DNA from: Streptomyces sp. MA5143a
GTDB lineage: Bacteria > Actinomycetota > Actinomycetes > Streptomycetales > Streptomycetaceae
NCBI RefSeq assembly: GCF_900290235.1
Contig: NZ_OLMK01000086.1
Location: forward strand, 1 to 64,000
Reading direction: 5' to 3'
DNA: 64,000 nucleotides
Shown here: positions 15,396 to 49,896 of the stretch, one piece after another
How the letters are laid out: the number at the start of each line of letters is the position of its first letter
Position numbering within the stretch: position 1 is the first letter of the stretch
Notes under the pieces: model-generated
Databases searched by the model: none
What the model was told of the DNA's origin: nothing
Seen by the model: the letters and a program-made list of their open reading frames with translations, nothing else
Position numbers and translations under genes: made by a program

Positions 15396-15452
15396 TTAGG
15401 GGGGTTGCGGGACGTGATCCGGGGCGGCCTCGCGGGAGCTAGGGGTGTCCGG
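15396..15452 (+). promoter_or_regulatory. Candidate LAL-regulator operator upstream of the 15526 P450
   Basis: Two G-rich elements, TTAGGGGGG (15396-15404) and GCTAGGGGTGTCCGG (15438-15452), point towards the P450 start about 75 bp away. The second shares AGGGGTGTC with 37406-37420 and CTAGGGGT with 20912-20925. The gap 15311-15525 also serves the divergent beta-barrel gene. Confidence 0.5.
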
Positions 15453-15525
15453 AGTCTGCTGAGGTCAGTAGGCTCCCGGGGGCGGAGCCGGCCACCGTCC
15501 GGTTCCTTCACCGAGGAGCGAGGCG

Positions 15526-16737
15526 ATGACCACCGATCAGCAGTCTCCATTGCCGGAAACACAGGACGATTTCCCGTCCCTGCTCGCCTGGCTGACGAAG
15601 AGTCGGCAGGAGAATCCGGTTGTTCCCGACGCGTTTCCCGGCCTTTGGCATGTTTTCCGGTATGCCGATGTCTCCCGGATTCTGTCCGACACGGCCACCT
15701 ATTCCAGCGACATGTCCGCCGTGATTCCTTCGCATCCGGACACGGACTGGATGGCCAAGGGGAATGTGGTCGGAATTGACCCGCCGATGCACGGCAGGCT
15801 GCGTTCGCTGGTGAGCAGGGCGTTCACACCCCGGCTGGTCGCCGGCCTGGAGCCGCGGATCACCGAGCTGGCCTCCGGGCTGCTGGACGCGGTCGCCGAC
15901 CGCGACCGGTTCGACCTGGTCGAGGCGCTCACGCATCCGCTGCCGGTGTTCGTGATCGCCGAGCTGCTCGGCATCCCGACGGAGGACCAACCCCTGTTCG
16001 AGAAGTGGGGGCTGGACTTCATCCTCGCCAACGGGGGCGGTGAGAGCGCCCTGCCGAGCGAGGAGAACGTCGCCTCGTTCGTACGGACGGCCGTGGAGAT
16101 GCGGACGTACATGCTGGAGCAGATCGCCATGCGGCGCACGGCACCCCGGGACGATCTGATCACCCAGCTGGTCCAGGCCAGGACCGACGACGGGCAGCTC
16201 GACGACGACGAGATCGTCGGCTTCGTCGGCACCCTGCTGCTCGCCGGTCACATCACGACGACGGCGGTGCTCGGCAGTACCGTCCTGTGTCTGGACGAGA
16301 ACGCCGAGGCAGCCGCGGAGGTCCGCCGGGACCGCTCCCTGGTGCCGGCCGCCGTCGAGGAGTCGGTGCGGCTGCGTCCGGCCTTCTCCCGTCTGGTCCG
16401 TATGACCACCCGGGAGTCGGAGCTCGGCGGCGTGACGATCCCCGCCGGTCAGGTCCTGACGCTGTGGACGGTGTCGGCCAACCGGGACCCCGAGCGGTTC
16501 ACCTCCCCCGACGCCTTCGACCTCCACCGCGACCAGGGCCGCCATCTCGGGTTCGGCCAGGGCATCCACTTCTGCATGGGCGCCCCGCTGGCCCGGCTGG
16601 AGGCACGGATCGTGCTCAACCTGCTGCTGGACCGCTTCCCCGGGCTGAGGGTCGCCGCGGACGCGGACGCGGTGGCGTACCACCACCCGAAGAACGTGGT
16701 CGGTCCGCGCCGCCTGACCGTCGAGGTCTCCGGCTGA
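15526..16737 (+). CDS. Cytochrome P450 monooxygenase
   Basis: This 403-aa soluble bacterial class I P450 (CYP107-like macrolide tailoring type) probably hydroxylates or epoxidises the polyketide. Visible motifs are an I-helix AGHITTT, in which the usual acidic residue before the Thr pair is Ile but the threonines are kept; ESVR as the ExxR motif; and the haem-thiolate loop FGQGIHFCMG near residue 345-355. Length is normal. The start ATG follows GAGGAGCGAGGCG, a good ribosome site. It is the only plus-strand gene between the PKS blocks and is convergent with a second P450. The redox partner is not encoded nearby. A G-rich candidate operator lies upstream, so expression probably follows the cluster regulator. 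The substrate position cannot be deduced from sequence. Confidence 0.93.
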   Translation: MTTDQQSPLPETQDDFPSLLAWLTKSRQENPVVPDAFPGLWHVFRYADVSRILSDTATYSSDMSAVIPSHPDTDWMAKGNVVGIDPPMHGRLRSLVSRAFTPRLVAGLEPRITELASGLLDAVADRDRFDLVEALTHPLPVFVIAELLGIPTEDQPLFEKWGLDFILANGGGESALPSEENVASFVRTAVEMRTYMLEQIAMRRTAPRDDLITQLVQARTDDGQLDDDEIVGFVGTLLLAGHITTTAVLGSTVLCLDENAEAAAEVRRDRSLVPAAVEESVRLRPAFSRLVRMTTRESELGGVTIPAGQVLTLWTVSANRDPERFTSPDAFDLHRDQGRHLGFGQGIHFCMGAPLARLEARIVLNLLLDRFPGLRVAADADAVAYHHPKNVVGPRRLTVEVSG

Positions 16738-16742
16738 GGGGA

Positions 16743-16803
16743 CCGTGCACGGCGGAGGGCCTGCACCGCCCCTCGGGTGGTGCAGGCCCTCCGCCGTGCA
16801 CGG
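16743..16803. terminator. Bidirectional terminator hairpin between convergent P450 genes
   Basis: A perfect 25-bp inverted repeat (arms 16743-16767 and 16779-16803, 11-nt loop) fills the gap between the two convergent P450 stops. It is perfectly symmetric, so it can act on both strands. No T-tract follows on either side, which is common in high-GC actinomycetes. Confidence 0.85.
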
Positions 16804-16845
16804 ATCACTGGCCCCGGCTCACCGGAGCGGGCGTGTTCCGGCGGG

Positions 16846-18066
16846 TCACCAGGTGACCGGCATCCGTTCCACCTCGGGGTGCCAGCCGGGCCGGTCGTTC
16901 AGTTCCTCGACGGGCAGGGTGACCTTGAGGCCCGGCAGGCGGCGGAAGAGGGTGCCGTAGGCGACTTCGAGACCGATCCTGGTCAGGTTGGCACCGAGGC
17001 AGTGGTGGATGCCGGTACCGAAGGCCAGATGGCCGCGGCCCGCGCGGCGGACGTCCAGCCGGTCGGGCTCGGGGTAGTCGGCGGGATCGCGGTTGGCTGC
17101 CCCGTTGGCGACGGCGACTCCCTCGCCCGCGCGGATGAGCTGCCCGCCCACCTCCACGTCCTCCAGGGCGACCCGCGGCATCAGGTCCAGGGGGCTGATC
17201 AGCCGCATCATCTCGTCGACGGCTCCGGGGACGACGGCGGGGTCGTCGCGCAGCAGGTCCACCTGGTCGGGGTTCTCCAGGAGGAGTCCCACGCCCGCGG
17301 TCAGCATGGCCTGGACCGGTGACTGCCCGGCGATGAAGATCAGGAAGCACAGGTTGGCGAGTTCCGTCCTGCTGAGCGTGCCGGTGTTCACGTGCTTCTC
17401 GATGACGCGGCTGGTGGGGTCGTCACCGGGGTTCTGCTGCTTGTCGTCGATGAAGCGCAGGAAGTACTGCTGGAGTGCGATCATGCGGGTCGCGACCTCG
17501 TCGCCGACCTGCGCGGTGTCGGCCGCGGAGGTGGCCTGCCGGCGTACCTCGCGCTGGTCCAGCAGCCACGCCTGCATGTCGGCGTAGTCCATGCCGAGCG
17601 CCCAGCAGGTGATGGTGCCGGAGAAGGGTTCGGCGAACGCGGTGACCAGGTCCGTCTCGTTCCCGCCGGCCAGCATGGAGTCGATGAGTTCGTCGGCCTT
17701 GCGCTGCATCGCGGGGCGCAGGTTCTCGGCCCGGCGCAGGGTGAACTCGCTCACGACGGACCGGCGCTGCACCGTGTGCTGCGGCGGATCCATGGTGAAC
17801 AGCATCGGGAAGGCGCGCGACCCCTCGAACGCCTCGGCGTAGATGGGGTATCCGGGGTTGGTGATGTCGGAGCTGAAGCGCGCGTCGTTGAGGACGGCGC
17901 GGGCCTGGTCGTGACGGGTGATGAGCCAGACGCGCCGCCCGTTGTAGAGCCGCCCCGGTGCCGGCGCCCCGGTGGCCCGCAGGGCGGGGTACTCGGCGGG
18001 CGGCGCGTAGGGGCACGTTCTCAGCAGGGGGAAGTCGAAGTCCGCGGAGGGAGTGGCTTCGGGCAC
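16846..18066 (-). CDS. Cytochrome P450 with atypical I-helix lacking the acid-alcohol pair
   Basis: This 406-aa P450 has EMMR as ExxR and an intact haem loop FGTGIHHCLG. The I-helix reads IFIAGQSPVQAM. At the position of the canonical AG-x-(D/E)-T-T, both the acid and the threonine are replaced (Q-S-P-V). In P450s such as EryF, loss of the Thr is compensated by a substrate hydroxyl that helps deliver protons. A similar mechanism, or non-hydroxylating chemistry, is possible here. The GTG start at 18066 is preferred because AAGGA lies 8 bp upstream and the protein then has normal length; earlier starts read into non-P450 sequence. It is 97 bp downstream of the KAS III gene on the same strand and probably co-transcribed with the CCR-KAS III pair. 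Confidence 0.93.
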   Translation of the reverse strand: MPEATPSADFDFPLLRTCPYAPPAEYPALRATGAPAPGRLYNGRRVWLITRHDQARAVLNDARFSSDITNPGYPIYAEAFEGSRAFPMLFTMDPPQHTVQRRSVVSEFTLRRAENLRPAMQRKADELIDSMLAGGNETDLVTAFAEPFSGTITCWALGMDYADMQAWLLDQREVRRQATSAADTAQVGDEVATRMIALQQYFLRFIDDKQQNPGDDPTSRVIEKHVNTGTLSRTELANLCFLIFIAGQSPVQAMLTAGVGLLLENPDQVDLLRDDPAVVPGAVDEMMRLISPLDLMPRVALEDVEVGGQLIRAGEGVAVANGAANRDPADYPEPDRLDVRRAGRGHLAFGTGIHHCLGANLTRIGLEVAYGTLFRRLPGLKVTLPVEELNDRPGWHPEVERMPVTW

Positions 18067-18163
18067 GGGAGCGTTCCTTCGGTAGGAGCTTGCTGGGCGT
18101 GGGGGGACAGGGATCACGGCCCGCCCGGTGGAACCGGACCGGCGGCTGTGGGGGAGGTGGGGT

Positions 18164-19150
18164 TCACCAGCGCAGCAGGCAGAGCCCGGCTGCCATGCCC
18201 GCGCCGAAGCCGGCCAGCAGCAGCAGTTCGCCGTCGTGCAGCAGACCCGCGCGGGACGCCTCGTCCAGGGCCACGGGAACCGAGGCGGCGCCCATGTTGC
18301 CGTACGTGACGAGCGGGGTGTGGGTGCGGGCGCCGGTGAGGCCGCAGCGCTCGACGAGTTCACCGAGGAGCACGCCGTTGGCCTGGTGGGGCACGAAGTG
18401 CGCGATCTGGTCGCGGGTGGTGCCGGTGCGCCCGAGCAGGGGGTCGATCATCGGGGGGACGTTGTGCATGACGAAGTCGGCGACGCCGCGGCCGATCATC
18501 CGCAGGTAGTGGCCGCCGTTCGCGACGGTGTCGGCGGAAGCGGGGACGCGGCTTCCGCCGCCCTCGATCCAGATGAGTTCGTGGGCGTCGCCACGTCCGG
18601 CGAGTTCGACGTCCAGGATGCCGCGCTGTTCCGGCACGGCCCCGATCACCGCGGCGCCGGCGGCGTCGCCGAGGAGGACGGCGGTGCCCCGGTCGCCGTA
18701 GTCGAGGAAGCGTGAGTAGAGGTCGGCGCCGATGACCAGGGCGAGTGAACCGGGACGCTGGGCGACGAGGGCGCGGGCCACGTCGAGGGCGTAGACGAAG
18801 CCGGCGCAGGCGATGTTGATGTCGAAGGCGGCGGCGCGGTGGGCGCCGAGCGCGTTCTGCACCAGGGACGAGGTGGGCGGCAGGGGGGCGTCGCCGGTGG
18901 AGGTGGCGACGATGAGGTGGTCGATGCGGTCCGCCGTGACGTCCGCGTCGTCGAGGGCGGCGACGGCGGCGTGCCGGGCGAGGTCGGAGGTGGCCTCGTC
19001 GGGGGCTGCGTAACGGCGGCCGGTGATGAGGGTGCGGCGGCCGATCCACTCGGCGGTGATGCCGGGGACGCGGCGGGCGATCTCCTCATTGGTGATCTCC
19101 TCCTTGGGGAGGTAGGAGCCGGTGCCGAGGATGCCGATGGAGGTGGTCAT
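18164..19150 (-). CDS. 3-oxoacyl-ACP synthase III-like (NphT7-like acetoacetyl-CoA synthase candidate)
   Basis: This 328-aa FabH-fold condensing enzyme has the Cys-His-Asn triad visible in DINIACAGF, HFVPHQANG and TYGNMGAAS. Segments such as LVIGADLYSR, HFVPHQANGV and LLAGFG-GMAA closely recall NphT7, which makes acetoacetyl-CoA from acetyl-CoA and malonyl-CoA. The start overlaps the upstream CCR stop by 4 bp (ATGA), so the two are translationally coupled. Acetoacetyl-CoA, after reduction and dehydration, becomes crotonyl-CoA, the CCR substrate. The hydroxyacyl-CoA dehydrogenase and dehydratase needed in between are not in the window and could be housekeeping enzymes or lie further left. A longer acyl acceptor, as in reveromycin-type side-chain pathways, cannot be excluded. 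Confidence 0.88.
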   Translation of the reverse strand: MTTSIGILGTGSYLPKEEITNEEIARRVPGITAEWIGRRTLITGRRYAAPDEATSDLARHAAVAALDDADVTADRIDHLIVATSTGDAPLPPTSSLVQNALGAHRAAAFDINIACAGFVYALDVARALVAQRPGSLALVIGADLYSRFLDYGDRGTAVLLGDAAGAAVIGAVPEQRGILDVELAGRGDAHELIWIEGGGSRVPASADTVANGGHYLRMIGRGVADFVMHNVPPMIDPLLGRTGTTRDQIAHFVPHQANGVLLGELVERCGLTGARTHTPLVTYGNMGAASVPVALDEASRAGLLHDGELLLLAGFGAGMAAGLCLLRW

Positions 19151-20514
19151 GGGGTCACCGCCAGGGCGCCGGGCACGTCGGCGGCGAAAGCGCGCAGCGG
19201 GTTGAGGCGGTCCTCGCCGATTCTGGCCCGGAGTTCGGGGTCGGTGACGCCGAGGCCGGGTTCGGGGGCCAGGCACAGGACGCCCACCTTGCCGATGTGG
19301 TCGTTGCGCTGCACGAGCCGGGTGGCCTCGCCGACCTCGTCCAGGGGGAACAACGACGACATCACCGGCATGATGCGGCCCTGGCCGAACAGCCGTGCGC
19401 ACTCCCACTGTTCGTGGAGGTTGGCCACATGGCTGCCGATGACCCGTTTGAGTTTCATCCACAGGTAGCGGTTGTCGTAGCGGTGCCGGTAGCCGGTGCT
19501 GGAGCCGCAGGTGACGACGGTGCCGCCGCGCCGTACGACGAACAGGGACATCCCGAACGTGGCCTGTCCGACGTGTTCGAAGACGATGTGGGGGTCCTCG
19601 CCGGTCTCGCGGCGGATGACCGCGCCGAGCCGTTTGCCGTCGGCGATGGCCTGCTCGAAGTCGTCGCCCTCGGACTCGCCGATGCCGATCTCCGAGCGGT
19701 CGATGACGATGTCGCAGCCGAGTGCGCGCAGCGCCTCGGCCTTGCGGGGCGAGCCGACGACACCGACGGGTATGCCGCCGCCGTTCTTGACGAACTGCAC
19801 GGCGTACGCGCCGACCCCGCCCGTCGCGCCCCAGATCAGCACCACGTCACCCTGTTTCATACGGGCGCCCCGGTCGGAGACCAGCATCCGGTAGGAGGTG
19901 CCGGCGCAGGCGGGCACGCAGGCGGCCTCCTCCCAGGTGAGGTGGGCGGGTTTGGGGATGAGCTGCCCGGCGCGGGCCAGGCAGTAGTGGGCGAGGCCGC
20001 CGAAGTTGGTCTCGTAGCCCCAGGCGAGCTGGTGTTCGCCGAGCATGCCGTCGGCCTGGGTGACGGCCTCCTGCTCGTCGACGCAGGCCGCGTTGACGAG
20101 GACGTGGTCCCCGACGCGCCAACGCCGGACGGCGGAGCCGACCCGCACGATCACACCGGCCGCGTCCGAGCCGAGGACGTGGTACGGCTGGTCGTGGCGG
20201 GCGGCCCAGCCGCCCTGCCGTCCGTAGCCGGCGAGGAACCGGAAGGTCGGCAGGGGCTCGAAGGTGGCGGACCAGACGGTGTTGTAGTTGATCGAGCTGG
20301 CCATGACGGCGACGAGCACCTCGTCGGGCGCCGGCTCCGGCAGCGGCACGGGGCCGACGCGGAGGGTCTTGCGCACGTCCTTGTCGTCGACACCCCGGAA
20401 CGCGTCCACGTCCTCGATGCGGAGGTGGGCCGCGGTGAACTCCTCGGGCAGAGCCGCGCGCTCCACCTCCTCGGGACTCGCTCCCGCGAGCACCGCGTCA
20501 GTCACAGAACCCAT
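19147..20514 (-). CDS. ccr: Crotonyl-CoA carboxylase/reductase
   Basis: This 455-aa medium-chain dehydrogenase/reductase performs NADPH-dependent reductive carboxylation of 2-enoyl-CoA to alkylmalonyl-CoA, most often crotonyl-CoA to ethylmalonyl-CoA. Family signatures are SSINYNTVWSA near the N-terminus, WGYETNFGG and GSHVANLHEQW, which contain the Asn, Glu and His of the CO2-binding site. There is also a Rossmann motif GATGGVGAYAVQF. It heads an apparent operon with KAS III (4-bp overlap) and the atypical P450, giving a dedicated extender supply. All complete AT domains in the window carry malonyl (HAFH) or methylmalonyl (YASH) signatures, so the ethylmalonyl-using module is probably beyond the left edge. 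A G-rich candidate operator lies 53-71 bp upstream of the start. Confidence 0.95.
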   Translation of the reverse strand: MGSVTDAVLAGASPEEVERAALPEEFTAAHLRIEDVDAFRGVDDKDVRKTLRVGPVPLPEPAPDEVLVAVMASSINYNTVWSATFEPLPTFRFLAGYGRQGGWAARHDQPYHVLGSDAAGVIVRVGSAVRRWRVGDHVLVNAACVDEQEAVTQADGMLGEHQLAWGYETNFGGLAHYCLARAGQLIPKPAHLTWEEAACVPACAGTSYRMLVSDRGARMKQGDVVLIWGATGGVGAYAVQFVKNGGGIPVGVVGSPRKAEALRALGCDIVIDRSEIGIGESEGDDFEQAIADGKRLGAVIRRETGEDPHIVFEHVGQATFGMSLFVVRRGGTVVTCGSSTGYRHRYDNRYLWMKLKRVIGSHVANLHEQWECARLFGQGRIMPVMSSLFPLDEVGEATRLVQRNDHIGKVGVLCLAPEPGLGVTDPELRARIGEDRLNPLRAFAADVPGALAVTP

Positions 20515-20566
20515 GTCGGCCCTTCCTCGTACGGCTACCGGTGTCGTCGACGCTAGGTGAGGCTCC

Positions 20567-20585
20567 GCCCCCTAACGCCACCCCT
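20567..20585 (-). promoter_or_regulatory. Candidate LAL-regulator operator upstream of ccr
   Basis: On the minus strand this reads AGGGGTGGCGTTAGGGGGC, two AGGGG elements 12 bp apart pointing at ccr. It matches 17 of 19 positions of the element at 37436-37454 upstream of the thioesterase gene. Confidence 0.55.
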
Positions 20586-20628
20586 CAGATCCCGCGGGGC
20601 CCCCTGTCCCGGTGTGCGGGGCCGGCGC

Positions 20629-20838
20629 TCATTCCGCGATGGCGGTCCGGGTGATCCAGCGGAAGACGGCGACCTCCTCACCGTCGATGGTGGTGAACTC
20701 ACCTTTATGTACGAAGTGCTCGTATCCGGCACCCAGGCGGTGCTTGACCTTCTCCGTGAGCGAAGTGGCGAACTGCAGCCTCTCCTCGTCCGGGAAATAC
20801 GCCGGGCCGTCGGACAGGAATACCTTGAAATTGACCAT
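20629..20838 (-). CDS. Small DUF5988-like protein
   Basis: This 69-aa soluble protein has a strong GAGGAGG ribosome site 8 bp before its ATG. Its C-terminal half (GYEHF, then VFRWITRTAIAE) matches the pattern I associate with DUF5988, a family of very small actinomycete proteins often found in biosynthetic gene clusters. No catalytic motif is visible. It lies between the LAL regulator and ccr on the same strand, with its own G-rich candidate operator about 75-95 bp upstream. It is therefore probably a cluster member rather than a chance frame. The function is unknown. Confidence 0.7.
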   Translation of the reverse strand: MVNFKVFLSDGPAYFPDEERLQFATSLTEKVKHRLGAGYEHFVHKGEFTTIDGEEVAVFRWITRTAIAE

Positions 20839-20911
20839 GCCGAAAACCTCCTCAGCCAGGGATTCACAGTGGACTTTCGCCTTGGGGAGAATCTCGCAGT
20901 GGCCCTGCGCA

Positions 20912-20934
20912 CGGACAACCCCTAGGCACCCCCG
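20912..20934 (-). promoter_or_regulatory. Candidate LAL-regulator operator upstream of the DUF5988-like gene
   Basis: On the minus strand a GGGGGTG element is followed closely by CTAGGGGTTGTCCG. The latter resembles CTAGGGGTGTCC at 15439-15450. It sits just after the regulator stop codon and points at the small gene 75-95 bp away. Confidence 0.5.
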
Positions 20935-20945
20935 TAAAGGTGGTG

Positions 20946-23687
20946 TCAGGCGGACTCGGGCAGCCCCAGCTCGATATGGAGCGGCAGTTCCTGACGCGAG
21001 GTGATGTCGAGCTTCTTGTAGACACGAGTCAGGTGTTGCTCGACGGTGCTGACCGTGATGAAGAGTTCGGACGATATCTCACGGTTTGTCATGCCACGGG
21101 AGGCCAGGACCGCCACGCGCCGCTCCGAGTCGCTGAGTTTCGCGACGGGGTCGGGGGCCCGGAGGGGGCCGCGCGCGGCGCGTGCGGCGGGGCGTCCGTC
21201 GACGAGCCCGAGGAAGGCGATCCGCTCGCGCAGCGGGCCTGCCCCGCACTCCTCGGCCAGCTGCTGGGCCTTGCGCAGGGTCAGGTCGGCGCGGGCCGGC
21301 TGGTCGAGGCCCCGGTAGGCCTCCGCGAGGTCGACCAGGACGCGGGCCAGTTCCCAGGAGTTGCCGGACGCCTGGAGGTGCTCGGCGGCCCGGGTGAGCA
21401 GTCCGGGCCGCTCGGGCGGGAGGGCGAGCTGGGCCCGTACGCGCAGCCACGACCCGGCGGCCAGGGGGGTATCACTGCCGGAGAGGGTCTCGTGGTTCTC
21501 CAGGAGTTGCTCGGCCTCCCGGGTGTTGTCGAGGGCGAGCCAGGCCTCGGCCGCGTCGATCCGCCAGGTCGGCTGTGTCCTCAGGGACGCGTCGCAGCGT
21601 TCGGCGTGGCGGCCGAGGGCCAGGAAGTCCGACAGGGCGAGATGAGGGCGGCCCACGGCCAGCAGGAACCGGCCGCGTGCCCGGAGGTAGTCCAGTCCGT
21701 GCAGGCTGCGGAAGAACCCGTCGGGCACGGGCCGGTCCAGCAGTCGGACGGCCTCCTCGTACTGTCCGGACGCGGTGCAGGCGCTGATCAGGGCGGTGAT
21801 GACCTGGCCGCACAGCCAGTGGCTGGGCGCGTCCCCGCCCAGGTCCACGATCTCGCGGGCGTGGGTCTCGGCCTCGGCGAGCCTGCCGCGGGCGAGGGCG
21901 GCCTCGGCACGCAGGGCGGTGAACAGCTGGCGCCAGCCCTCGACACCGCGCGCGGCCGCCTCCCCCTGGAAGTGCTCGCACCAGGCGTCCGCGAGGTCGG
22001 GTCGGCCGGCGGTCATGAGGTGCCGCAGTTCGGGAACGATCAGAGCGAGGGTGGTGTCGCCGAGGGACCACGCGGCGAGGTGTTCCTCGATCTCGTGGAC
22101 GCCGGGGGTCCGGACGTGGTGCCCGATGACGCAGACGCCGAGGTTGACCCCGTCGGCGCAGACCCGGCCGTCGAAGTCGTGTTCCTCGCCGCAGGCGGTC
22201 CGTTCGGAGGACATCTGCAGGGACCAGGCGTCGGGTATGCCGGGGGTGAGGCAGAAGAGCCAGGGCCAGCCCTCGTTGAAGTAGTCGGGCTGCCCGTTCG
22301 CCTCCCCTCCGCCCGCGGCCTGTGCGGCCACGGTGCGGATCATCGCCCTGCCTTCGTCCAGCCGCCCGCATCCGATCATCAGCAGGGCGGCGAGCACGGT
22401 CCGTGCCGGGCAGGCGTCCGTCCCGTGGGAGCACTCGGGCCACTCGATCCGGCCCAGGTACTGGTGCTCGACCCGCCACGGGTCGGTGCGCAGCAGTACA
22501 ACGTAACGTTTCAGCGCGAGCCTGGCCCGTTCCCAGCAGTCGGTCGCGGCGTCATGGGCGAGGTCGACGCACGCGACGGCGAAGTCGGCGTCGTCCCTGG
22601 CCAGCGCCTCGTCGGTGGCGCGTTGGAGGACGGCCATCTGCCAGGGCTCGGTGACGGCGCCGATCTCCAGCAGATAGCGGGACGTCGCTCCGGCGCCCGC
22701 GCCGCGCCGGCGAACCTCTTCGGCGGCCAGCAGCAGGATCTCGGCGCGACGGTCGGGGTCGGCGTGCTCCAGGATCTCGTCCTCGATCACCGGATGCCGC
22801 AGCCGGCAGCCGTCGGCCACACCGGCCTCACGCAGCAGGTTCAGACCGCGCGCGATCTCCGCCCCTTCCAGACGCAGGACGGCGGCGAGCCCGACGGGGT
22901 CGGAGAACTCGCGCAGCGCGGCCAGGCCCAGGGCGACGGAGGAGGCCAGCGGGCCGCTGAGGCGTACGCAGTCCCGGGCGACCCGGGAGTACAGGCCGCG
23001 CGGGCTGGGCCAGAGTGCCCCGGCGCCGACTCGGGCCCGCATGTCCAGTTCCTCGGCCAGGGCCCGGACGAGCAGGGGGCTGCCGCCGCTGAGTGCGTGC
23101 ACCGCCTCGCGGTCGGCGTCGTCCAGAGGGCCGCCGTGCAGCGTCGCACAGAGCGCGGCGGCCTGGTCACGGTCGAGGGAGCCCAGCCTGATGCGGTGGA
23201 GGTTGGGCTGGCGGAGCAGGTCGCAGTGCACGTCGCCCTGGTAGCCACCGAACGGCAGCAGGGGCACGACCACCATGATGGGGCTGTTGCGCAGCCGGCG
23301 CCGCAGGGCCGCCAGCAGACGGCGCCAGGTGGACTCCTCGTGTTCCCGCGGCCCGTCCAAGCAGATGACGACGGGTGCGCGCTCGGCGAGCGCCGCCAGA
23401 CCGTCGCTTAAGTCCGGCGGCCACACGGATTCCGGTGCTCCCGGCGGAGCGGTGCGGTCCACCCCGGGCGCGACCAGATCATCGAGGTCGGGCCGGGACA
23501 GGACGGTGGCGCCCTTCTCCAGGGCATGATGGGCGAAGCCCTCCATGAGGTCGGTCTTCCCGGAGCCGACTCCGCCCTCCAGGACGACGGTCAGGGCTGT
23601 ACCGCGCTCGCATTCGGCGAGGAGGGCCGTCATGAGTTGCAGTTTGTCGTCTCGGCCAGAAAACAACATGTACCTAACCCCAATCAC
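20946..23687 (-). CDS. LuxR-family LAL transcriptional regulator of the PKS cluster
   Basis: This protein of about 913 aa has the architecture of large ATP-binding LuxR regulators. A Walker A motif GGVGSGKT lies at about residues 38-45 and a Walker B-like VVICLDG near residue 110. A long helical TPR/MalT-like middle follows. The C-terminal LuxR helix-turn-helix contains LSDSERRVAVLASRGMTNRE and TVSTVEQHLTRVYKKL. The start is uncertain: GTG 23687 or ATG 23669, giving MLFSGRDDK, which is a more typical N-terminus. Neither has an ideal ribosome site. Leu93 is encoded by TTA (23409-23411), the bldA-dependent leucine codon. Proteins of this class activate macrolide clusters. Its position between the PKS blocks and the shared G-rich promoter motif suggest it is the pathway activator. 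Confidence 0.93.
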   Translation of the reverse strand: MIGVRYMLFSGRDDKLQLMTALLAECERGTALTVVLEGGVGSGKTDLMEGFAHHALEKGATVLSRPDLDDLVAPGVDRTAPPGAPESVWPPDLSDGLAALAERAPVVICLDGPREHEESTWRRLLAALRRRLRNSPIMVVVPLLPFGGYQGDVHCDLLRQPNLHRIRLGSLDRDQAAALCATLHGGPLDDADREAVHALSGGSPLLVRALAEELDMRARVGAGALWPSPRGLYSRVARDCVRLSGPLASSVALGLAALREFSDPVGLAAVLRLEGAEIARGLNLLREAGVADGCRLRHPVIEDEILEHADPDRRAEILLLAAEEVRRRGAGAGATSRYLLEIGAVTEPWQMAVLQRATDEALARDDADFAVACVDLAHDAATDCWERARLALKRYVVLLRTDPWRVEHQYLGRIEWPECSHGTDACPARTVLAALLMIGCGRLDEGRAMIRTVAAQAAGGGEANGQPDYFNEGWPWLFCLTPGIPDAWSLQMSSERTACGEEHDFDGRVCADGVNLGVCVIGHHVRTPGVHEIEEHLAAWSLGDTTLALIVPELRHLMTAGRPDLADAWCEHFQGEAAARGVEGWRQLFTALRAEAALARGRLAEAETHAREIVDLGGDAPSHWLCGQVITALISACTASGQYEEAVRLLDRPVPDGFFRSLHGLDYLRARGRFLLAVGRPHLALSDFLALGRHAERCDASLRTQPTWRIDAAEAWLALDNTREAEQLLENHETLSGSDTPLAAGSWLRVRAQLALPPERPGLLTRAAEHLQASGNSWELARVLVDLAEAYRGLDQPARADLTLRKAQQLAEECGAGPLRERIAFLGLVDGRPAARAARGPLRAPDPVAKLSDSERRVAVLASRGMTNREISSELFITVSTVEQHLTRVYKKLDITSRQELPLHIELGLPESA

Positions 23688-23700
23688 ACCCCACCGTGTT

Positions 23701-23735
23701 CTGCGATTTGCTTGGGATCGACCAAGAAATCGCAG
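23701..23735. promoter_or_regulatory. Long inverted repeat just upstream of the LAL regulator gene
   Basis: Arms CTGCGATTTGCTTGG (23701-23715) and CCAAGAAATCGCAG (23722-23735) flank a 6-nt loop GATCGA. They are complementary except for one unpaired base. The element lies 14 bp before the GTG start and 210 bp after the upstream PKS stop. It is more A/T-rich than its surroundings. It could be an operator, a leader hairpin or the terminator of the PKS transcript. No T-tract follows. Confidence 0.6.
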
Positions 23736-23767
23736 AGCGCGCCGGACGGTCTACAGAACTGTCCGAT

Positions 23768-23858
23768 GGGTTCAGAACCCCCGCGAAAACCACATCGGTT
23801 TTGATGAGCCGATCCCTGGTTCACTGTCGCGGCCGATCAGCCCGGTTATCGGCTCGTC
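23768..23858. promoter_or_regulatory. Two further inverted repeats in the regulator promoter region
   Basis: GGGTTCAGAACCC (23768-23780) is a perfect 6-bp palindrome around a central A. GATGAGCCGAT (23803-23813) and ATCGGCTCGTC (23848-23858) form inverted arms with one mismatch, 34 bp apart. They lie in the 257-bp gap that must hold the regulator promoter. No function is assigned. Confidence 0.4.
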
Positions 23859-23944
23859 ACCAACATAGCCAAGGGCCAGCGACCATGGAAGCCAGCATTC
23901 CGGAAACGGGCTGGATGCGCAGTGTAAAGATTCTCAGAGTTTGA

Positions 23945-30532
<6,588 letters not shown>

Positions 30533-30575
30533 ACGTGCGTCACTTTCCTCGAGGTGGGGGGTGAGCTGCCGGCGG

Positions 30576-30639
30576 GGCACGTGGGGGGCGGCGTGCCGGA
30601 GCGGGTGGTGCACCGCCGGGCCAGGCGGCCGGGCGGTGC
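30576..30639. other. Intercistronic hairpins between two PKS genes
   Basis: The 130-bp gap between the PKS genes holds inverted repeats. GGCACG and CGTGCC flank a G-rich loop near 30576-30598. GCACCGCC (30610-30617) pairs with GGCGGTGC (30632-30639). They could affect processing or polarity. No promoter-like sequence was recognised here. Confidence 0.35.
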
Positions 30640-30662
30640 GGCCGGGGCGGATTCCGGCGGTT

Positions 30663-33600
30663 TCAGGGCAGTCGGACGCCGTCGTCGACCATGGCGAAGA
30701 GGTCGTCGTCGGAGGCCGTGTCGAGGTCGTGGTGCGGATCGTGCTCGGTGTCGTGGCCGTCGGTGGTGGCGTCCGGTCGGCGCCACGTCTCCAACAGGTG
30801 CCGCAGCCGCTCGTCGAGGTGCCTGCGGTCCGGGTCGTCGGGGGCGACCTCCCCGAGGTGCCGGAGGAGACCGTCGAGGAGGGTCAGTGCCTCCTGGGCC
30901 GGTGACGCCTGCGGCGGCGCGAGCTCGGCGCGCAGCAGGGCCACCAGCGCCTGGGGGGTGGGGTGGTCGAAGACGAGGGTCGCGGGCAGCCGCAGTCCGG
31001 TGGCGGCGCCGAGGCTGTTGCGCAGCTCGACGGCGGTCAGGGAGTCGAAGCCGAGTTCGCGGAAGGTGCGCTGCGAGCCGAGGGTCTGCGGCGAGCCGTG
31101 TCCGAGGACGGTGGCGGTGTGCGTGTGGACGAGGTCGAGCAGCAGCTGGTCGCGCTCGCTGTCGGACAGCGGGGCCAGCCGCTCGGCGAGGGCGGGTTCG
31201 CCCGCCGCGGCGCCGGCCGCGCGCCGCAGGGCGGAGGTCTGGACGAGGGCGCGGAACACGGCGGGCAGGGTGCCCGCCTCGGCCTGTCCGCGCAGGGCGG
31301 CGGTGTCCAGTGCCAGGGGTGCCACGGCGGGGGCGTCCACGCCGAGGGCGGTGTCGAACAGGGCGAGGCCCTGGTCGGCCCCGAGGGCGCGCAGGCCGGA
31401 CCGGGCCATGCGGCGCTGGTCGGTGTCGCCGAGTCCGGCGGTCATGCCGTCGCCCGCTTGTTCCCAGGCTCCCCAGAGCAGGGAGACGGCGGCGAGCCCG
31501 CGGGCCCTGCGCTGTGCCGCGAGGGCGTCCAGGCAGGTGTTCGCGGCGGCGTAGTTGGCCTGGCCGGGGTTGCCGGTGAAGCCGGACGCGGAGGAGAACA
31601 GGGCGAACACCGCCGGGTCGTGGCCGAGTTCGCGGGTGACGGAGTCGAGGTGGGCGGCGGCGTCGGCCTTGGGGAGCAGGACGCGGTGGAGCTGCTCGTC
31701 GGTGAGTCCCGCGGCGATGCCGTCGTCGAGGACGCCCGCGGTGTGGACGATCGCCGTGGTGGGCCGGTCGGCGGGCAGGCCGGCCAGGGCGGTTCGCAGG
31801 GCGTCGCGGTCGGCGACGTCGCAGGCGAGGGTGGTGACGTCGGCGGCGCCCGCCGCGCGCAGGTCCGCCTCCAGTTCCGCGGCCCCGGGGGCGGCGGGGC
31901 CGCGACGGCCGAGCAGCAGCAGGTGACGGGCGCCGTGGTGGGTGACGAGGTGCCGGGCGACGAGGCCGCCGAGGTGGCCGCCCGCGCCGGTGACCACGAA
32001 AGTGCCTGTCGGGTCCGGGCGGCGGGGCACGGTGAGGACGGCCTTGCCGACCAGCTTGGCCTGGCTGAGCGCGCGGAACGCGTCCCGGGCCCGGCGGATG
32101 TCCCACACCGTCAGCGGGGGCGGGGTGAGCGCCCCGTCCGCGAACAGGTCGAGGACCGCCCGGAGCATCTCGCGCATCCGGTCGGGGGACGCCTCCTGGA
32201 GGTCGTACGCCTGGTAGGTGACGCCGGGGTGGGCGGCGGCCACGTCCTGCGGGTCGCGGATGTCGGTCTTGCCCATCTCCAGGAAGTGGCCGCCGCGCGG
32301 CAGCAGTCCGAGGCCCGCGTCGACGAACTCCCCCGCCAGGCAGTCGAGGACGACGTCCATGCCCTGCCCGTCGGTGGTCCGCCGGAAGTGGTCGGCGAAG
32401 CCGAGGCTGCGCGAATCGGCGGTGTGGTCGTCGTCGAGCCCGGCGGCGCTCAGTACGTGCCGTTTCCCGGCGCTGGAGGTGGCGTACACCTCGGCGCCCA
32501 GATGGCGGGCGAGCTGGACGGCGGCCGTGCCGACGCCTCCGGCGCCCGCGTGGACGAGCACCTTCTGGCCGGGGCGGACGCCCGCGAGGTCCACGAGGCC
32601 GTAGTAGGCCGTGAGGTAGGCGATGGGTACGGCGGCGGCCTGTGCGAAGGTCCAGCCGTCGGGCATCGGTGCCAGCCAACGGTGGTCGGTGACGGCGACC
32701 GGGCCGAAGGTGGCGGGGCCGAGGCCGAGGACCCGGTCACCGGGCCGGAGGTCGGGCACGTCGGGGCCGACGGCGGTGACGACACCGGCGAGTTCGCCGC
32801 CGAGGCCGCGCATGCCGGGGACGAGGCCGAGGGCGACGACGACGTCCCGGAAGTTGACTCCGCAGGCGCGCACCTCGACCAGCACCTGGCCGGACCCGAG
32901 GGGTGCACCGAGGCTGTCGGGTGCCGGGACGAGCGCGAGGTCGTCGATGGTCGCGCCGTCGCCCGCGCGGTCGAGGACCCAGGGTCCGGGTCCGGGCGGG
33001 GGCAGCAGCGCCGGGTCGCGGGTGAGCGGCACCAGGCGGGGCGTGTGGAGGGTGCCGGCGCGGAGGGCGAGGCGGGGTTCGGGGTGGGCGAGGGCTCGGC
33101 CGAGGACGGCGGCCGACGCGTCGTCGCCGTCCCAGTCGACGACGGTGATCCGGTCGGGGTTCTCGTGCGCGGCGGAACTCAGCAGCCCCCACACGGCCGC
33201 CGCGACGGGGTCGGCGGCGGGGTCGTCGTCGCCGACCCGTGCGGCGCCCCGAAGGAGCACGGTGAGCCGGGCGCCGCTGTCGTCGGTCGACCAGCGTCGT
33301 ACGGTGTCGAGCGCCCGGCGGGTCGCGGTGTGCACGGCCGTCACGGCGTCCGGGTCGCCCGGTTCGGTGCCGGGCGGCAGCGCGGCGTCGAGGGCGACGA
33401 CGATCTGGTCGGCGTCCCGTGCGGCGGTGGCCGGGTCAGGGTGGTGGGCCGCGCCGGGGAACAGGGGCAGTCGGCCCGGGTCGCCGACGAGTGCCCAGCG
33501 GTCGGCCGGGGCGGCGGGCTCGGCCGGGAGGGGGACCTCCCCCCAGCCGGGCAGGAGGAGATCGCGGTCCGGGACGGCGGCCTGCGCGGGAGCGGTCGGA

Positions 33601-36600
33601 CCGGGGGCGGCGCGGACGGTGAGCGAGCGGATGTCCGCCACGGGGCTGCCCGTGGGATCCGCGAGGGCGAGGGCGAAGCTGTCGGGGCCGGTGGGGGTGA
33701 TCCGGACGCGCAGCGCGGTGGCCCCGGTGGCGTGGAGGGTCACTCCGTCCCACACGAACGGCAGCCTGCCCTCGTCGGCCGTCTCCGCGGCGGGGCCGCC
33801 GGCGAACACGGCGGCGTGCAGGGCGGCGTCGGCGAGCGCCGGGTGGAGGGCGAAGTCGTCGGCGTCCGTGACGGTTTCGGGCAGCGCGACCTCCGCGTAC
33901 ACCTCGTCGCCGTGGCGCCAGGCCCGTCGTACGCCCCGGAAGGTGGGCCCGTAGCCGAAACCGGCGGCGGCGAAACCGGGGTAGAGGGTGTCGGTGTCGA
34001 GGGGGGTGGCTCCGGCGGGGGGCCACGCGGCGCCGCTTGCCGGGTCGGTGGCGGGTTGTTCGGCGTCGAGGACGCCGTCGGCGTGGGTGGTCCAGTCGTC
34101 GCCGTCGGCCGTCTCGGGTCGGGAGGCCACGCGGAACGCGGACCGCCCGTCGGCGTCGGGCTCGCTGACGACGGCCTGGATGCGGACGCCTCCGGTGGCG
34201 GGCAGTACGAGTGGGGCCTGGAGGACGAGTTCGCCGACGCGCAGGGCCGTACGGGCGGCCCCGTGGTGCCGGGAGGCGGCGTGCAGGGCGAGTTCGAGGA
34301 GGGCGGTTCCGGGGACGAGGACGGTGCCGCCCACCGCGTGGTCGGCCAGCCAGGGGTGGGTGTCCAGGCCGAGGCGGCCGGTCAGCAGCAGGGTGCCGGT
34401 ACCGGCGACGGTGACGGCGGCGCCGAGCAGGGGGTGTCCGGCGGCGGGCAGTCCGGCCGCGCCGGTGGCGGCTGACGCCCCGGGCCGGGGCCGCAGCCAG
34501 TAGTGCCGGTGCTGGAAGGCGTAGGTCGGCAGGGACACGGGGCGGGCGCCCCGGCCCGCGTAGAAGGCGGCCCAGTCGACCGGGACGCCGCGGGTGTGCA
34601 GATGGGCCAGCGCGGTGACGAGCGCCGTTGCCTCGGGCTGGTCGCGGCGTTGGGCCGCCACGGGCCGGGCGGTGTCCTCGTCTCCGTCGGCCATCGCGGT
34701 CAGCGCGGCGTCCGGGCCGAGTTCGAGGGAGGTGGTGACGCCCGCCGCGCGCAGGGTGCGGGTCACGTCGTGGAAGCGGACGGTGTCGCGGACCTGTCGG
34801 GCCCAGTAGTCCGGCGACCGCCACTCCTCGTCGGTCTGCGGGGCACCGGTGACGCTGGAGACGACGGGGATCGTCGGGGGGCGGAAGGTGAGGGTCCGGA
34901 CGACGTCGCGGAAGGCGTCGAGCATGGGGTTCATCAACGGCGAGTGGAAGGCGTGGGACACGCGCAGCGTCCGGGTGCGGCGGCCGAGTCCGCTGAAGTG
35001 CTCGGCGACAGGGGCGACCGCCTCCGCGGTGCCCGAGGCCACCACGGACCGTTCGCCGTTGACGGCCGCGAGGGCGACGGTGTCCTCCCGCCCCGCGAGC
35101 AGCGGCGCGACCTCCTCCTCGGTGGCCTCGACGGCCACCATGGCGCCACCGGCCGGCAGGGCCTGCATGAGCCGGCCGCGGGCGGCCACCAGGGCACAGG
35201 CGTCGGGCAGCGCGAGCATGCCGGAGACGTGGGCGGCGGTGAGTTCGCCGATGGAGTGTCCGGCCAGGTGGCGGGGGGTGACTCCCCAGCTCTCCACGAG
35301 CCGGAACAGCGCCACCTCCATCGCGAAGGTCGCGGCCTGGGTGTACTGGGTCTCGTCGAGGAGCGCGGACGCGTCGGTGCCGGGCTCGGCGAACATGAGG
35401 TCCCGCAGGGGCCGTTCGAGGTGTCGGTCGAGTTCGGCGCAGACGGCGTCGAGGGCCTGCGCGAACACCGGGAAGACGGCGTGCAGTTCACGGCCCATCC
35501 CGGGGCGCTGGGCGCCCTGCCCGGTGAACAGGAAGGCGCAGACCTGTTCGTCGGCCAGGCCCGTCACCAGTCCGGGTGCCGGTTCCCCGGCGGCGAGGGC
35601 CTTCAGGGCGCGGGTGAGGTCGTCGCCGTCCGAGACGACGGCCACGGCACGGTGGTCGAGGGCGGTCCGGGTGGTGGCGGTGGCGTGACCGGCGTCGAGC
35701 AGCCGCGGGGCGGTGGCGCCGCTCATGTGCACGTGCAACCTGGCGGCCTGGGACCGCAGGGCGTCGGTGTCGCGGGCGGACACGAGGACCGGTACGACGG
35801 GCAGCGGCACGACGGTGTCCGCCTCACCGCCGGTGTCCGCCTCACCTGCGGTGTCCGCCTCACCTGCGGGTTCCGCCTCACCTGCGGGTTCCGCGTCCGT
35901 CGGGGCCTGTTCGAGGATCACATGGGCGTTGGTGCCGCTCACGCCGAAGGAGGAGACTGCGGCCCGGCGGGGGCGGTCGAGGTCGGGCCAGTCGCGCGGT
36001 TCCATGAGCAGTTCGACGGCCCCGGCGGTCCAGTCGACCTGTGGTGACGGCCGGTCGACATGGAGGGTGCGGGGCAGCCTGCCGTGACGCATGGCCATGA
36101 CCATCTTGATGACGCCGGCGGCACCGGCGGCGGCCTGGGTGTGCGCCAGGTTCGACTTCACCGACCCCAGCCACAGCGGTTGCCCATCGGGTCGCTCCGC
36201 CCCGTAGGTCGCCAGGAGCGCCTGGGCCTCCACGGGGTCGCCGAGGCGGGTGCCGGTGCCGTGCCCCTCCACGACGTCGACATCGGCGGCGGTCAGTCGG
36301 GCGTTCGCCAGGGCCTGGCGGATGACACGCTGCTGGGAGGGGCCGTTGGGTGCGGTCAGACCGTTGGACGCGCCGTCCTGATTGACGGCGGTGCCGCGGA
36401 CCACGGCGAGGATCCGGTGCCCGTGGCGGCGGGCGTCCGTGAGCCGCTCCACGACCAGCACGGCGGCGCCCTCGCCCCACGCGGTGCCGTCGGCGGCGTC
36501 CGCGTACGACCGGCAGCGGCCGAAGGGCGCCACATTGCCCTGTCGGCTGCTCTCGACGAACGTGGCCGGGCTGGACATGACGGTGGCGCCGCCGGCCAGC

Positions 36601-37280
36601 GCCAGGTCGCACTCCCCCGCCCGCAGTGCCTGGGCGGCGAGGTGCAGGGTGACCAGGGAGGAGGAGCAGGCCGTGTCCACGGTGAGGGCCGGCCCCTCCA
36701 GACCGAGGGTGTAGGCGACCCGGCCGGAGAGCACACTGCCGGACATGCCGGTACTCATCAGGCCCTGCACCTCGTCGGGGAGGGTGGACAGTTCGCCGCC
36801 GTAGTCGTGGTACATGAGGCCCGCGTAGACGCCGGTGCGGCTGCCGGCCAGCGAGGACGGCACGATCCGGGCGTGCTCCAGCGCCTCCCAGGCGACCTCC
36901 AGCAGCAGCCGCTGCTGCGGATCCATCGCCAGGGCCTCACGGGGCGAGATCCCGAAGAAACCGGCGTCGAACTCGCCCGCGTCGTACAGGAAGGCGCCCT
37001 CCCGGGCGCGGCTGGTGCCGAGCCCGTCGTCGTCGGCGAACAGGGCGTCGAAGTCCCAGCCGCGGTTGTCGGGCATGGGGCCCACCGCGTCGCGGCCCTC
37101 GTCCACCAGCCGCCACAGCTCGTCGGGGCCGTGGACACCGCTGGGGAACCGGCAGCCGATGCCGACGATCGCCAGGGGTTCGCTGTCGGCGTCCTCCAGC
37201 TGCTTCAGCCGTCTGTGCGCCTTGCGGAGATCGCCCGTCATCGTACGGATGTATTCGACGAGTCGAGCTTCGTCCGTCAC
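30663..37280 (-). CDS. Single-module type I PKS, fully reducing (KS-AT-DH-ER-KR-ACP), malonyl-type
   Basis: This 2205-aa single-module PKS has an N-terminal docking helix ([20 protein letters not shown]). The KS has VDTACSSSL near residue 200. The AT carries GHSIG (about 675) and HAFH, indicating malonyl-CoA. The DH is intact ([10 protein letters not shown] near 980, DAALHA). The ER has [11 protein letters not shown] near 1577. The KR has LDDG (B type) and Tyr in QANYAAANT. The ACP has LGFDSL near 2070. The C-terminal segment ([15 protein letters not shown]) is docking-like and could pair with the helix of the downstream PKS. The start is GTG with AGGGGG upstream. The predicted product of this extension is a saturated two-carbon unit without a branch. 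It is divergent from the type II thioesterase gene. Confidence 0.95.
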
Positions 37281-37405
37281 TGGAACCCCCTGGGGTCGGA
37301 GCCGTGCGGATGTTCACCAGGGAGCGGGCAGCGGTCGCCGCAGGACGGCGGGCCGAGCGGTCCTGGAAGATTGGACTTTCAAGTAGACGAGATCATGGGC
37401 GGGTA

Positions 37406-37454
37406 CCGACACCCCTGACCTCGCCCCGGGAGGTTAGGGGTGGGGTCAGGGGGC
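37406..37454. promoter_or_regulatory. Candidate LAL-regulator operators in the divergent PKS/thioesterase promoter
   Basis: On the plus strand AGGGGTGGGGTCAGGGGGC (37436-37454) points at the thioesterase, whose start is about 75 bp away. On the minus strand GGTCAGGGGTGTCGG (37406-37420) points at the PKS gene. ACCCCTGACC and GGTTAGGGGT form a 10-bp inverted repeat with one mismatch. Motifs recur at 15396-15452, 20567-20585 and 20912-20934. Confidence 0.55.
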
Positions 37455-37528
37455 CGACGGCGGCCGGGCGACGGCCGCCGGCTGTTAGCGTCCGAGGACC
37501 GCCAGCCCCCAGCTTCCGGAGCCGACAG

Positions 37529-40116: not shown

Positions 40117-40154
40117 CCGTCCGCCGCTCCACACACCGCCCCGGCCCGCCGAGC

Positions 40155-44064: not shown

Positions 44065-44100
44065 GGTTCGGCTCCCAAGTGGTCCAGTGGTCCAGCGGTC

Positions 44101-45333: not shown

Positions 45334-45364
45334 CGGACGGCTCCGTCCACGGGAAGGGACAGGT

Positions 45365-46225: not shown

Positions 46226-46234
46226 GGTGACCCC

Positions 46235-48747
<2,513 letters not shown>

Positions 48748-48831
48748 TCAATGTGCCTGTCGCGAGGAGGGGGTGTCAAGGGGTCCGTGACGTCGGAAAA
48801 CGGCCTTCGGAAAGGGCCCGGGAACGGCGAA

Positions 48832-48873: not shown

Positions 48874-48906
48874 TCGTCCGACCGGTCTTCCGACCTCGCT
48901 ACTCGA

Positions 48907-49884: not shown

Positions 49885-49896
49885 GGTCAGTGCTCC

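What the first reader, a model, noticed from the sequence alone, without database searches (positions are those of the whole stretch)
15396..37454. Shared G-rich motif at PKS-cluster promoters, probable operator of the LAL regulator
Elements with (C/T)TAGGGG or AGGGGTG cores occur upstream of the P450 (15438), ccr (20567-20585), the DUF5988-like gene (20912-20934) and the PKS/thioesterase divergent promoter (37406-37454). The ccr and thioesterase elements match at 17 of 19 positions, with AGGGG repeats 12 bp apart. Most point towards their gene from about 55-95 bp. A weaker version (GGGGTGTGATTGGGGTTAGG) lies at the regulator start itself.
Basis: partly seen in the sequence, partly recalled or inferred. 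Interest (0 to 1): 0.65.

Follow-up and report, generated by a model that had tools for sequence, protein, structure and literature searches.

The report
Activator boxes of a polyketide-cluster regulator
The G-rich DNA boxes found in front of genes in a Streptomyces antibiotic cluster are real, conserved promoter elements set at a fixed distance from the predicted start of transcription, and they recur in other clusters that carry the same type of regulator, so they are very probably the switch through which that regulator turns the cluster on.

Summary
All five (C/T)TAGGGG of the window lie between genes of one polyketide cluster (ossamycin type; the LAL is an OssR homologue). The boxes recur in five orthologous clusters; against the most distant (LAL 56% identical), 65 of 70 box columns are identical, 388 of 614 elsewhere. 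They have a fixed place: AGGGG ends 23-25 nt before a -10 hexamer at four promoters and 33 nt at the thioesterase, against the -35 element, as for a class II activator. Promoters outside the window and an unrelated LAL cluster show the same geometry. In 150 Streptomyces genomes TAGGGG-to-TAGCGT spacing peaks at 23-24 nt (31 of 128 listed hits, 8.3 expected); such hits lie near LAL genes more often than others (8 of 15 against 3 of 39). Best reading: direct-repeat LAL operators that work like MalT boxes. Binding is untested. A LAL site recalled from patents resembles the box, so novelty is moderate.

The parts
15396..15402 (+). Distal box TTAGGGG of the P450a promoter (43 bp upstream of the proximal box)
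   Evidence: TAGGGG kept in 5 of 5 sequences aligned
15439..15445 (+). Proximal box CTAGGGG(TG) of the P450a promoter, AGGGG 23 nt before the -10
   Evidence: GCTAGGGGTGT invariant in 5 of 5
15469..15474 (+). -10 hexamer TAGGCT of P450a (predicted)
   Evidence: spacing 23 nt in 4 of 5 sequences, 24 in G228
15526..16737 (+). Cytochrome P450 (P450a)
   Evidence: Pfam PF00067
14780..15310 (-). 176-aa DUF1579-like protein, OssO-type putative spirocyclase
   Evidence: weak PF07617 match below cut-off; same place and length as OssO in PMC6490886
20569..20575 (-). ccr box 1, TTAGGGG (AGGGG 13 nt before the -10)
   Evidence: identical in 5 of 6 clusters
20581..20585 (-). ccr box 2, AGGGG(TGG), 25 nt before the -10, 12 bp upstream of box 1
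20601..20605 (-). ccr box 3, AGGGG, 45 nt before the -10
   Evidence: at 45 nt in 5 of 5 sequences given (S. caniscabiei, which has lost the boxes, was not given)
20550..20555 (-). -10 hexamer TAGCGT of ccr (predicted)
19147..20514 (-). Crotonyl-CoA carboxylase/reductase (ccr)
   Evidence: TIGR01751 above cut-off
20919..20925 (-). Box CTAGGGG of the DUF5988 (OssX1-like) promoter, directly followed by TTGTCC
   Evidence: TAGGGGTTGTCCG invariant in 6 of 6
20929..20933 (-). Upstream G-run of the DUF5988 promoter
   Evidence: G-run present in 5 of 6, absent in G228
20890..20895 (-). -10 of DUF5988 (GAGATT; imperfect hexamer) 23 nt after the box (predicted)
   Evidence: A at position 2 and T at position 6 kept in 6 of 6 at 23-24 nt (read by eye from its rows)
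20629..20838 (-). DUF5988 protein, 69 aa
   Evidence: PF19450
20946..23687 (-). LAL regulator, OssR homologue (913 aa from GTG; likely true start ATG at 23669)
   Evidence: GerE PF00196 at 850-901, weak AAA_16 and TPR_MalT
23673..23692 (-). G-rich stretch at the LAL start codon; no -10 seen at the operator spacing (by eye); not counted as an operator
37412..37418 (-). Box TCAGGGG(TG) of the PKS promoter, 24 nt before TCTACT
   Evidence: ACACCCCTGAC invariant in 5 of 5
37382..37387 (-). -10 of the PKS gene (TCTACT; weak hexamer, predicted)
   Evidence: TCTACT or TCCATT at 23-24 nt in 5 of 5 (read by eye from its rows)
37434..37440 (+). Thioesterase distal box TTAGGGG(TG), AGGGG 45 nt before the -10
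37448..37452 (+). Thioesterase proximal box AGGGG, 33 nt before the -10
   Evidence: 33 nt in 5 of 5
37486..37491 (+). -10 hexamer TAGCGT of the thioesterase (predicted)
37529..38311 (+). Type II thioesterase
   Evidence: PF00975
30663..37280 (-). Modular PKS divergent from the thioesterase

Best explanation
The boxes are operators of the cluster's LAL regulator (a STAND ATPase with a C-terminal LuxR-type helix-turn-helix). One proximal TAGGGG(T) box lies at about -42 to -37, abutting the -35 element (e.g. TAGGGG-TTGTCC-N17-GAGATT), with one or more further AGGGG boxes upstream in direct repeat, about one or two helical turns away (10-12 or 20-22 bp; 43 bp at P450a). ATP-bound, oligomerised LAL binds the direct repeats on one face of the DNA and contacts RNA polymerase at the weak -35, so that the P450, ccr, DUF5988, thioesterase, PKS and (outside the window) P450c/PKS units come on together. 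Shown: position, conservation, spacing, recurrence, association with LAL genes. Inferred: that the LAL binds, that it activates, the -10 and -35 assignments, and the oligomer.
For: (1) Window against the G228 orthologue: 65 of 70 box columns identical, 388 of 614 other intergenic columns (P 4e-8). (2) Fixed spacing to the -10: P450a 23 (24 in G228), ccr 13/25/45, thioesterase 33/45 in all 15 sequences given; DUF5988 23-24 in 6 of 6 and PKS 23-24 in 5 of 5, with weaker hexamers. (4) Where another gene (SDR-like by eye) stands in place of P450a in S. caniscabiei, the box, its 23-nt spacing and TAGGCT stay; where the DUF5988-ccr spacer has collapsed there, the ccr boxes are gone. (5) An unrelated LAL cluster (36% LAL identity, seen in 4 genomes) has tandem TTAGGGG with AGGGG-N23-TAGCGT and N24-TACCGT. 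(6) Genus scan: spacing peak at 23-24, 31 of 128, P 1e-10; these spacings were in my note before the scan. (7) Within 60 kb of a LAL-type HTH: 8 of 15 (spacing 23-24) against 3 of 39 (other spacings), P 7e-4; such HTHs (E up to 1e-13) number 0-2 in 40 of 41 genomes and 7 in one. (8) Of 30 right-spaced hits read, those in loci with a KS motif or LAL match have T after TAGGGG in 19 of 20 and a GGGG within 14 nt upstream in 17 of 20; those in loci with neither, 1 of 10 and 2 of 10 (P 7e-6 and 0.001); neither feature was in the search pattern.
Against: No binding, transcript or start-site data. Of 10 other LAL loci fetched (of 11 found at 35-38% identity), 5 have neither KS motifs nor the geometry, and one KS-bearing locus (G058b) lacks the box, so not every such LAL uses it; the 4 positive loci are one orthologous cluster. 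Many right-spaced hits have no LAL within 20 kb (19 of 25 loci, and one of the other six is a poor 237-aa match), and 7 of 15 testable hits none within 60 kb; a third of the hits look like chance. The box count in the window equals the shuffle mean. DUF5988 and PKS -10 hexamers do not fit TANNNT. In plasmid LAL regions the geometry is rare: 4 matches in 3 of 12 regions (482 kb) against 0 in 240 kb of control, and most YTAGGGG there (14 of 16) do not fit it. Related genomes share promoters, so the P values overstate independence.
Confidence: 0.8

Rival explanations
1. The boxes are bound by a regulator encoded outside the cluster (for example a PAS-LuxR of the PimM type or another global LuxR protein) that serves many polyketide clusters, and the LAL acts elsewhere.
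For: The PimM operator half (CTVGGGA, recalled) resembles CTAGGGG; several right-spaced hits in PKS-bearing loci have no LAL within 20 kb.
Against: Boxes here are direct repeats without the facing TCCC half (by eye); association with LAL genes is strongest in the 23-24 nt spacing class; of the 17 window proteins that I scanned with Pfam only the LAL is a regulator.
Confidence: 0.1
2. The boxes are the -35 element of an alternative sigma factor, read together with a TAGCGT-like -10.
For: Fixed 23-25 nt spacing to the -10 and position next to -35.
Against: Extra boxes upstream at one or two helical turns, boxes at 13 and 33 nt, and an intervening -35-like TTGTCC or TGTC fit an activator better; no sigma gene was met among the 17 window proteins scanned.
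Confidence: 0.05
3. Chance G-runs in a GC-rich genome, picked out by eye.
For: The window count equals the shuffle mean; AGGGGTG is common and mostly coding.
Against: All five YTAGGGG intergenic, conserved beyond background, phased to the -10, found in held-out promoters and clusters.
Confidence: 0.03

Closest known systems
MalT boxes (E. coli, Klebsiella; MalT of Actinoplanes sp. SE50/110)
   Same: STAND ATPase with LuxR-type HTH; short G-rich box overlapping or abutting -35; repeated boxes. Passages of PMC7567727 give a repeat of GGA(T/G)GA bordered by G (GGGGA(T/G)GAGG) and about 34-35 nt to the start site; [quoted passage not shown]
   Different: Core here is TAGGGGT, not GGATGA; the Actinoplanes motif is an inverted pair (TCATCC-5-GGATGA); the inducer here is unknown.
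Putative FkbN (LAL, tacrolimus cluster) binding sequence
   Same: Operator proposed for a LAL of a macrolide cluster.
   Different: A review (PMC6022917, passages) describes two 7-nt inverted repeats similar to the PimM site, from information theory; the boxes here are direct repeats phased to the -10. The original paper was not seen.
LAL binding site CTAGGGGGTTGC in Warp Drive Bio patents (recalled, no call)
   Same: Nearly the same core; the 15396 element reads TTAGGGGGGTTGC.
   Different: Recalled only; a search of the paper library for that string found 0 papers, and patents are not held. I do not know whether -10 phasing or tandem spacing is described there.
Ossamycin (oss) and HM190 22-membered macrolide clusters
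   Same: Same kinds of genes in the same order round OssR, OssX1, ccr, P450s, OssO and thioesterase, save OssD (PMC6490886 and PMC7333363, passages).
   Different: The passages that I read mention no operator or promoter motif for OssR; the full texts were not read.
MilO (mildiomycin, LuxR family) operator
   Same: Direct repeats for a LuxR-family activator (PMC11784345, passages).
   Different: Repeat TGTC(N)3CGGT, 142 bp upstream of the start site, not at -35.

Membership tests
LAL / MalT-like STAND activator (the protein) | About 900-aa protein with C-terminal LuxR HTH | tested here: met
   GerE PF00196, 46 bits (cut-off 23.5), residues 850-901 of 913
LAL / MalT-like STAND activator (the protein) | N-terminal AAA/Walker ATPase | tested here: inconclusive
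   AAA_16 25.9 bits, below its cut-off 32.6; GGVGSGKT seen by eye
LAL / MalT-like STAND activator (the protein) | MalT-like TPR middle | tested here: inconclusive
   TPR_MalT 18.8 bits, cut-off 45
MalT-box-like operator | Box overlapping or abutting -35 of regulated promoters | tested here: met
   AGGGG 23-25 nt before the predicted -10 at P450a, ccr, DUF5988, PKS; thioesterase one turn further (33). Start sites not mapped.
MalT-box-like operator | Two or more boxes in direct repeat, same face | tested here: met
   ccr 13/25/45, thioesterase 33/45, P450a two boxes 43 bp apart; 10-bp repeats in other clusters. The PKS promoter shows one clear box only.
MalT-box-like operator | GGA(T/G)GA core | tested here: not met
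   Core is TAGGGGT; so it works like a MalT box but is not one
MalT-box-like operator | Bound by the regulator | not testable with these tools
   needs EMSA or footprint
PAS-LuxR (PimM) operator | Palindrome CTVGGGAWWTCCCBAG (recalled) | tested here: not met
   No facing TCCC half beside the boxes in the alignments (read by eye)
SARP operator | Heptamer direct repeats with 4-bp spacers | tested here: not met
   Core and spacings differ; definition from PMC3367932 passages

The most novel reading that the evidence does not exclude
The tandem TAGGGGT boxes phased at 23-24 nt from the -10 are a shared operator code for the whole subclass of Streptomyces LALs with the TVSTVEQHLTRVY recognition helix, so that regulons of silent modular-PKS clusters can be read from sequence and one LAL could cross-activate unrelated clusters.
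Probability: 0.5. Interest if true: 0.65.

Novelty: new variant of a known kind. Interest (0 to 1): 0.52.

Why it matters
LALs are frequent cluster-situated activators of modular polyketide clusters, but the passages that I could read give no established operator for them: one review says that the sequences recognised by the geldanamycin regulators have yet to be elucidated (PMC6784220), another gives only a putative inverted-repeat site for FkbN (PMC6022917). A box, an orientation and a distance make LAL regulons predictable, help to tell which genes belong to a cluster, and give a precise target for activating silent clusters.

Tried and rejected
AGGGGTG as a motif of its own: not enriched, mostly coding. 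The tandem pattern YTAGGGG-N7-GGGG in the own genome: 4 hits, none in the window, fewer than its mirror; the repeat spacing varies too much for one rigid pattern. The LAL-start element as an autoregulatory site: partly conserved but at the start codon with no -10 at the right distance (by eye). The mirrored-pattern control of the genome search was set aside, because the mirror of TAGGGG is far commoner (188 against 1,998). Presence of a LAL within 20 kb was a weak test (LAL 6 of 25, one of them a poor match, against 2 of 16 for other spacings and 1 of 12 in random 20-kb loci; KS motifs 14 of 25, 2 of 16, 0 of 12), since clusters are longer than that; the 60-kb test by HTH position replaced it. 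Rows dropped or chosen: 22 of 150 listed hits were set apart as one conserved locus (LuxR gene beside a protease); the list was cut at 150 rows, so totals are not known, and overlapping tandem boxes count as separate hits. One search covers the hits of 41 genomes that I chose by hand: all 31 hits at 23-24 nt, 47 of 70 at other spacings, and 3 of 8 (25-26 nt), 3 of 11 (33-34 nt) and 0 of 15 (the conserved locus) near a LAL. The 15-against-39 test uses only hits at least 60 kb into their contig; without that rule it is 10 of 31 against 4 of 47 (P 0.009). The 18 rows were picked (3 window sites and 15 from KS- or LAL-bearing loci); one search repeats the count on all 30 hits in the fetched loci. 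12 of 52 plasmid records with a LAL-type HTH were fetched. Literature: 9 searches. Of those with box letters, one search found nothing, one search gave 6 papers and one search gave 50 (25 listed), none recognised from the listings as a LAL operator; in PMC3367932 the string is in a primer.
Full report
WHAT IS THERE. The window is the first 64 kb of contig C181 (84,608 bp) of a 9.8-Mb genome; the closest named LAL loci are from Streptomyces. The cluster part (1 to about 38.3 kb) holds modular PKS genes, an OssO-like protein, two P450s, ccr, a DUF5988 protein, a LAL, two PKS genes and a thioesterase. The same kinds of genes in the same order, save OssD, are listed for ossamycin (PMC6490886; OssR, OssX1, OssC, OssO; passages), and the 22-membered spiroketal macrolide cluster of Streptomyces sp. 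HM190 has eight PKS, three P450, one ccr and one regulator gene (PMC7333363, passages). LAL orthologues: S. torulosus 89%, HM190 88%, S. ossamyceticus 77%, S. caniscabiei 72%, unnamed G228 56%. To the right (38.4 kb on) the ten proteins scanned look like primary metabolism and transport.

THE BOXES. YTAGGGG occurs five times in the window, each time intergenic by hand-set gene limits. The raw number is not above shuffle. Against the genome (188 in 9.81 Mb) 0.74 are expected in 38.4 kb (P 0.001). By automatic gene calls the non-coding share is 7 of 7 in the HM190 region (120 kb, 4.6% non-coding), 4 of 5 in G228 (one of the five lies outside the cluster), 2 of 2 in caniscabiei, 4 of 4 in torulosus and 3 of 3 in ossamyceticus; in the window the automatic calls put 3 of 5 inside ORFs that I judge spurious. 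Control loci: 4 in 240 kb; flank 0 in 46 kb.

CONSERVATION. In the alignments the ccr pair is identical in 5 of 6 clusters. It is missing in S. caniscabiei, where the DUF5988-ccr spacer has collapsed and ccr can ride on the DUF5988 promoter. The DUF5988 box is invariant in 6 of 6, the P450a proximal box in 5 of 5; the thioesterase/PKS boxes stand in 5 of 5 with sequence (torulosus is cut by a contig end). Window against G228: 65 of 70 box columns identical against 388 of 614. In S. caniscabiei no P450a match passed my 50% filter and a gene that reads like an SDR by eye stands in its place, but the box, the 23-nt spacing and TAGGCT are kept.

GEOMETRY. Distances from the end of AGGGG to the -10 are fixed: P450a 23 (24 in G228), ccr 13, 25 and 45, thioesterase 33 and 45, in the five sequences given for each. 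DUF5988 and PKS have poorer hexamers at 23-24 nt (read from its rows; not found by the TANNNT rule). The box is followed by TTGTCC or TGTC, a -35-like stretch, at DUF5988, P450a and PKS. The proximal box thus lies near -42 to -37 and others upstream. The own genome shows an HM190-like P450c promoter sequence on contig C33 at 11984-12040, probably the other half of this cluster; I could not read that contig.

OTHER CLUSTERS. Ten of the eleven loci found with LALs of 35-38% identity were fetched: 25 YTAGGGG in 400 kb, 23 called non-coding, in 7 of 10 loci. Four (G069, G165, G055, G096: one orthologous cluster) have tandem TTAGGGG with AGGGG-N23-TAGCGT and AGGGG-N24-TACCGT. The geometry is in 4 of 5 loci with KS motifs and 0 of 5 without. 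With these spacings in my note I scanned 150 genomes for TAGGGG-N10..40-TAGCGT. Of 150 listed hits, 22 belong to one conserved locus; of the other 128, 31 have 23-24 nt (8.3 expected if uniform, P 1e-10) and 16 have 33-34, one turn more. LAL-type HTHs (E up to 1e-13) number 0-2 in 40 of 41 genomes searched and 7 in G096. Hits at 23-24 nt lie within 60 kb of one in 8 of 15 testable cases against 3 of 39 for other spacings (P 7e-4). Of 30 right-spaced hits in fetched loci, the 20 in loci with a KS motif or LAL match have T next to TAGGGG in 19 and GGGG within 14 nt upstream in 17; the 10 in loci with neither, 1 and 2. So the right-spaced hits fall into real tandem operators of PKS clusters and chance matches. 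In 12 plasmid LAL regions (482 kb) YTAGGGG is 3.3 per 100 kb and TAGGGG-N22..25-TANNNT has 4 matches in 3 regions; in 6 control stretches (240 kb) 1.25 and 0, a weak difference by itself. Those 4 matches stand before annotated starts: the P450 next to the LAL and a metallophosphoesterase in L218, an aminotransferase in L223, a monooxygenase in L225.

MECHANISM. A STAND ATPase with LuxR HTH, short repeats and a box at -35 is how MalT works (PMC7567727 passages; rest recalled). I infer the same for this LAL: ATP-dependent oligomer on tandem boxes, contact with RNA polymerase at a weak -35. The LALs of these clusters share TNREI..L.(I/V)T(V/I/M)STVEQHLTR(V/A)Y(K/R)K with small variation, which fits one DNA code. 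Not shown: binding, activation, start sites.

LIMITS. Related genomes are not independent. The box is not universal among LAL loci, although they share the helix: G012, G209 and G058b have none in 40 kb. Several right-spaced hits have no LAL in reach. The LAL-start element is not an operator by this model. A closely similar LAL site is, from memory, in company patents; that lowers novelty and raises confidence, but I could not check it.

Noticed in passing
L131 about 1500-1545; also L124, L128, L130: Conserved locus: a LuxR-type regulator gene (HTH FISVKTVEATLTRVYRKLGI in 4 of 4 loci read) followed by a promoter-like stretch GAGGGTTTTCCCT...TAGGGG(G/C)TTCCCTCATTGGG...TAGCGT and, in 3 of 4, a trypsin-like protease (GDSGGPL). 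It made 22 of 150 listed hits; perhaps an operator of that regulator.
   Followed up: partly
G248 (S. caniscabiei) contig C19, about 30850-31100: Another gene (SDR-like by eye) stands where P450a is in the others, under the same operator and -10.
   Followed up: partly
window 18364-19146: About 780 bp between P450b and ccr without a confident gene; the ossamycin cluster lists a KASIII gene (OssD) between ccr and the P450s, so this may be a remnant.
   Followed up: no
G000 contig C119 116984-117018: A GGGG-N25-TAGCCT match lies just downstream of another LAL-type gene of the own genome (HTH at C119:117129-117305, minus), the same layout as LAL to DUF5988.
   Followed up: no
G228 contig C1, about 10025963-10025995 (105963-105995 of the joined stretch): Between P450c and the PKS gene two CTAGGGGG face each other as an inverted repeat, unlike the direct repeats elsewhere; could be a terminator or a two-way operator.
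   Followed up: no
window 38392-55595: Right flank: protein O-mannosyltransferase, sarcosine oxidase and folate one-carbon genes, glycine-betaine transporter, aldehyde dehydrogenase.
   Followed up: no
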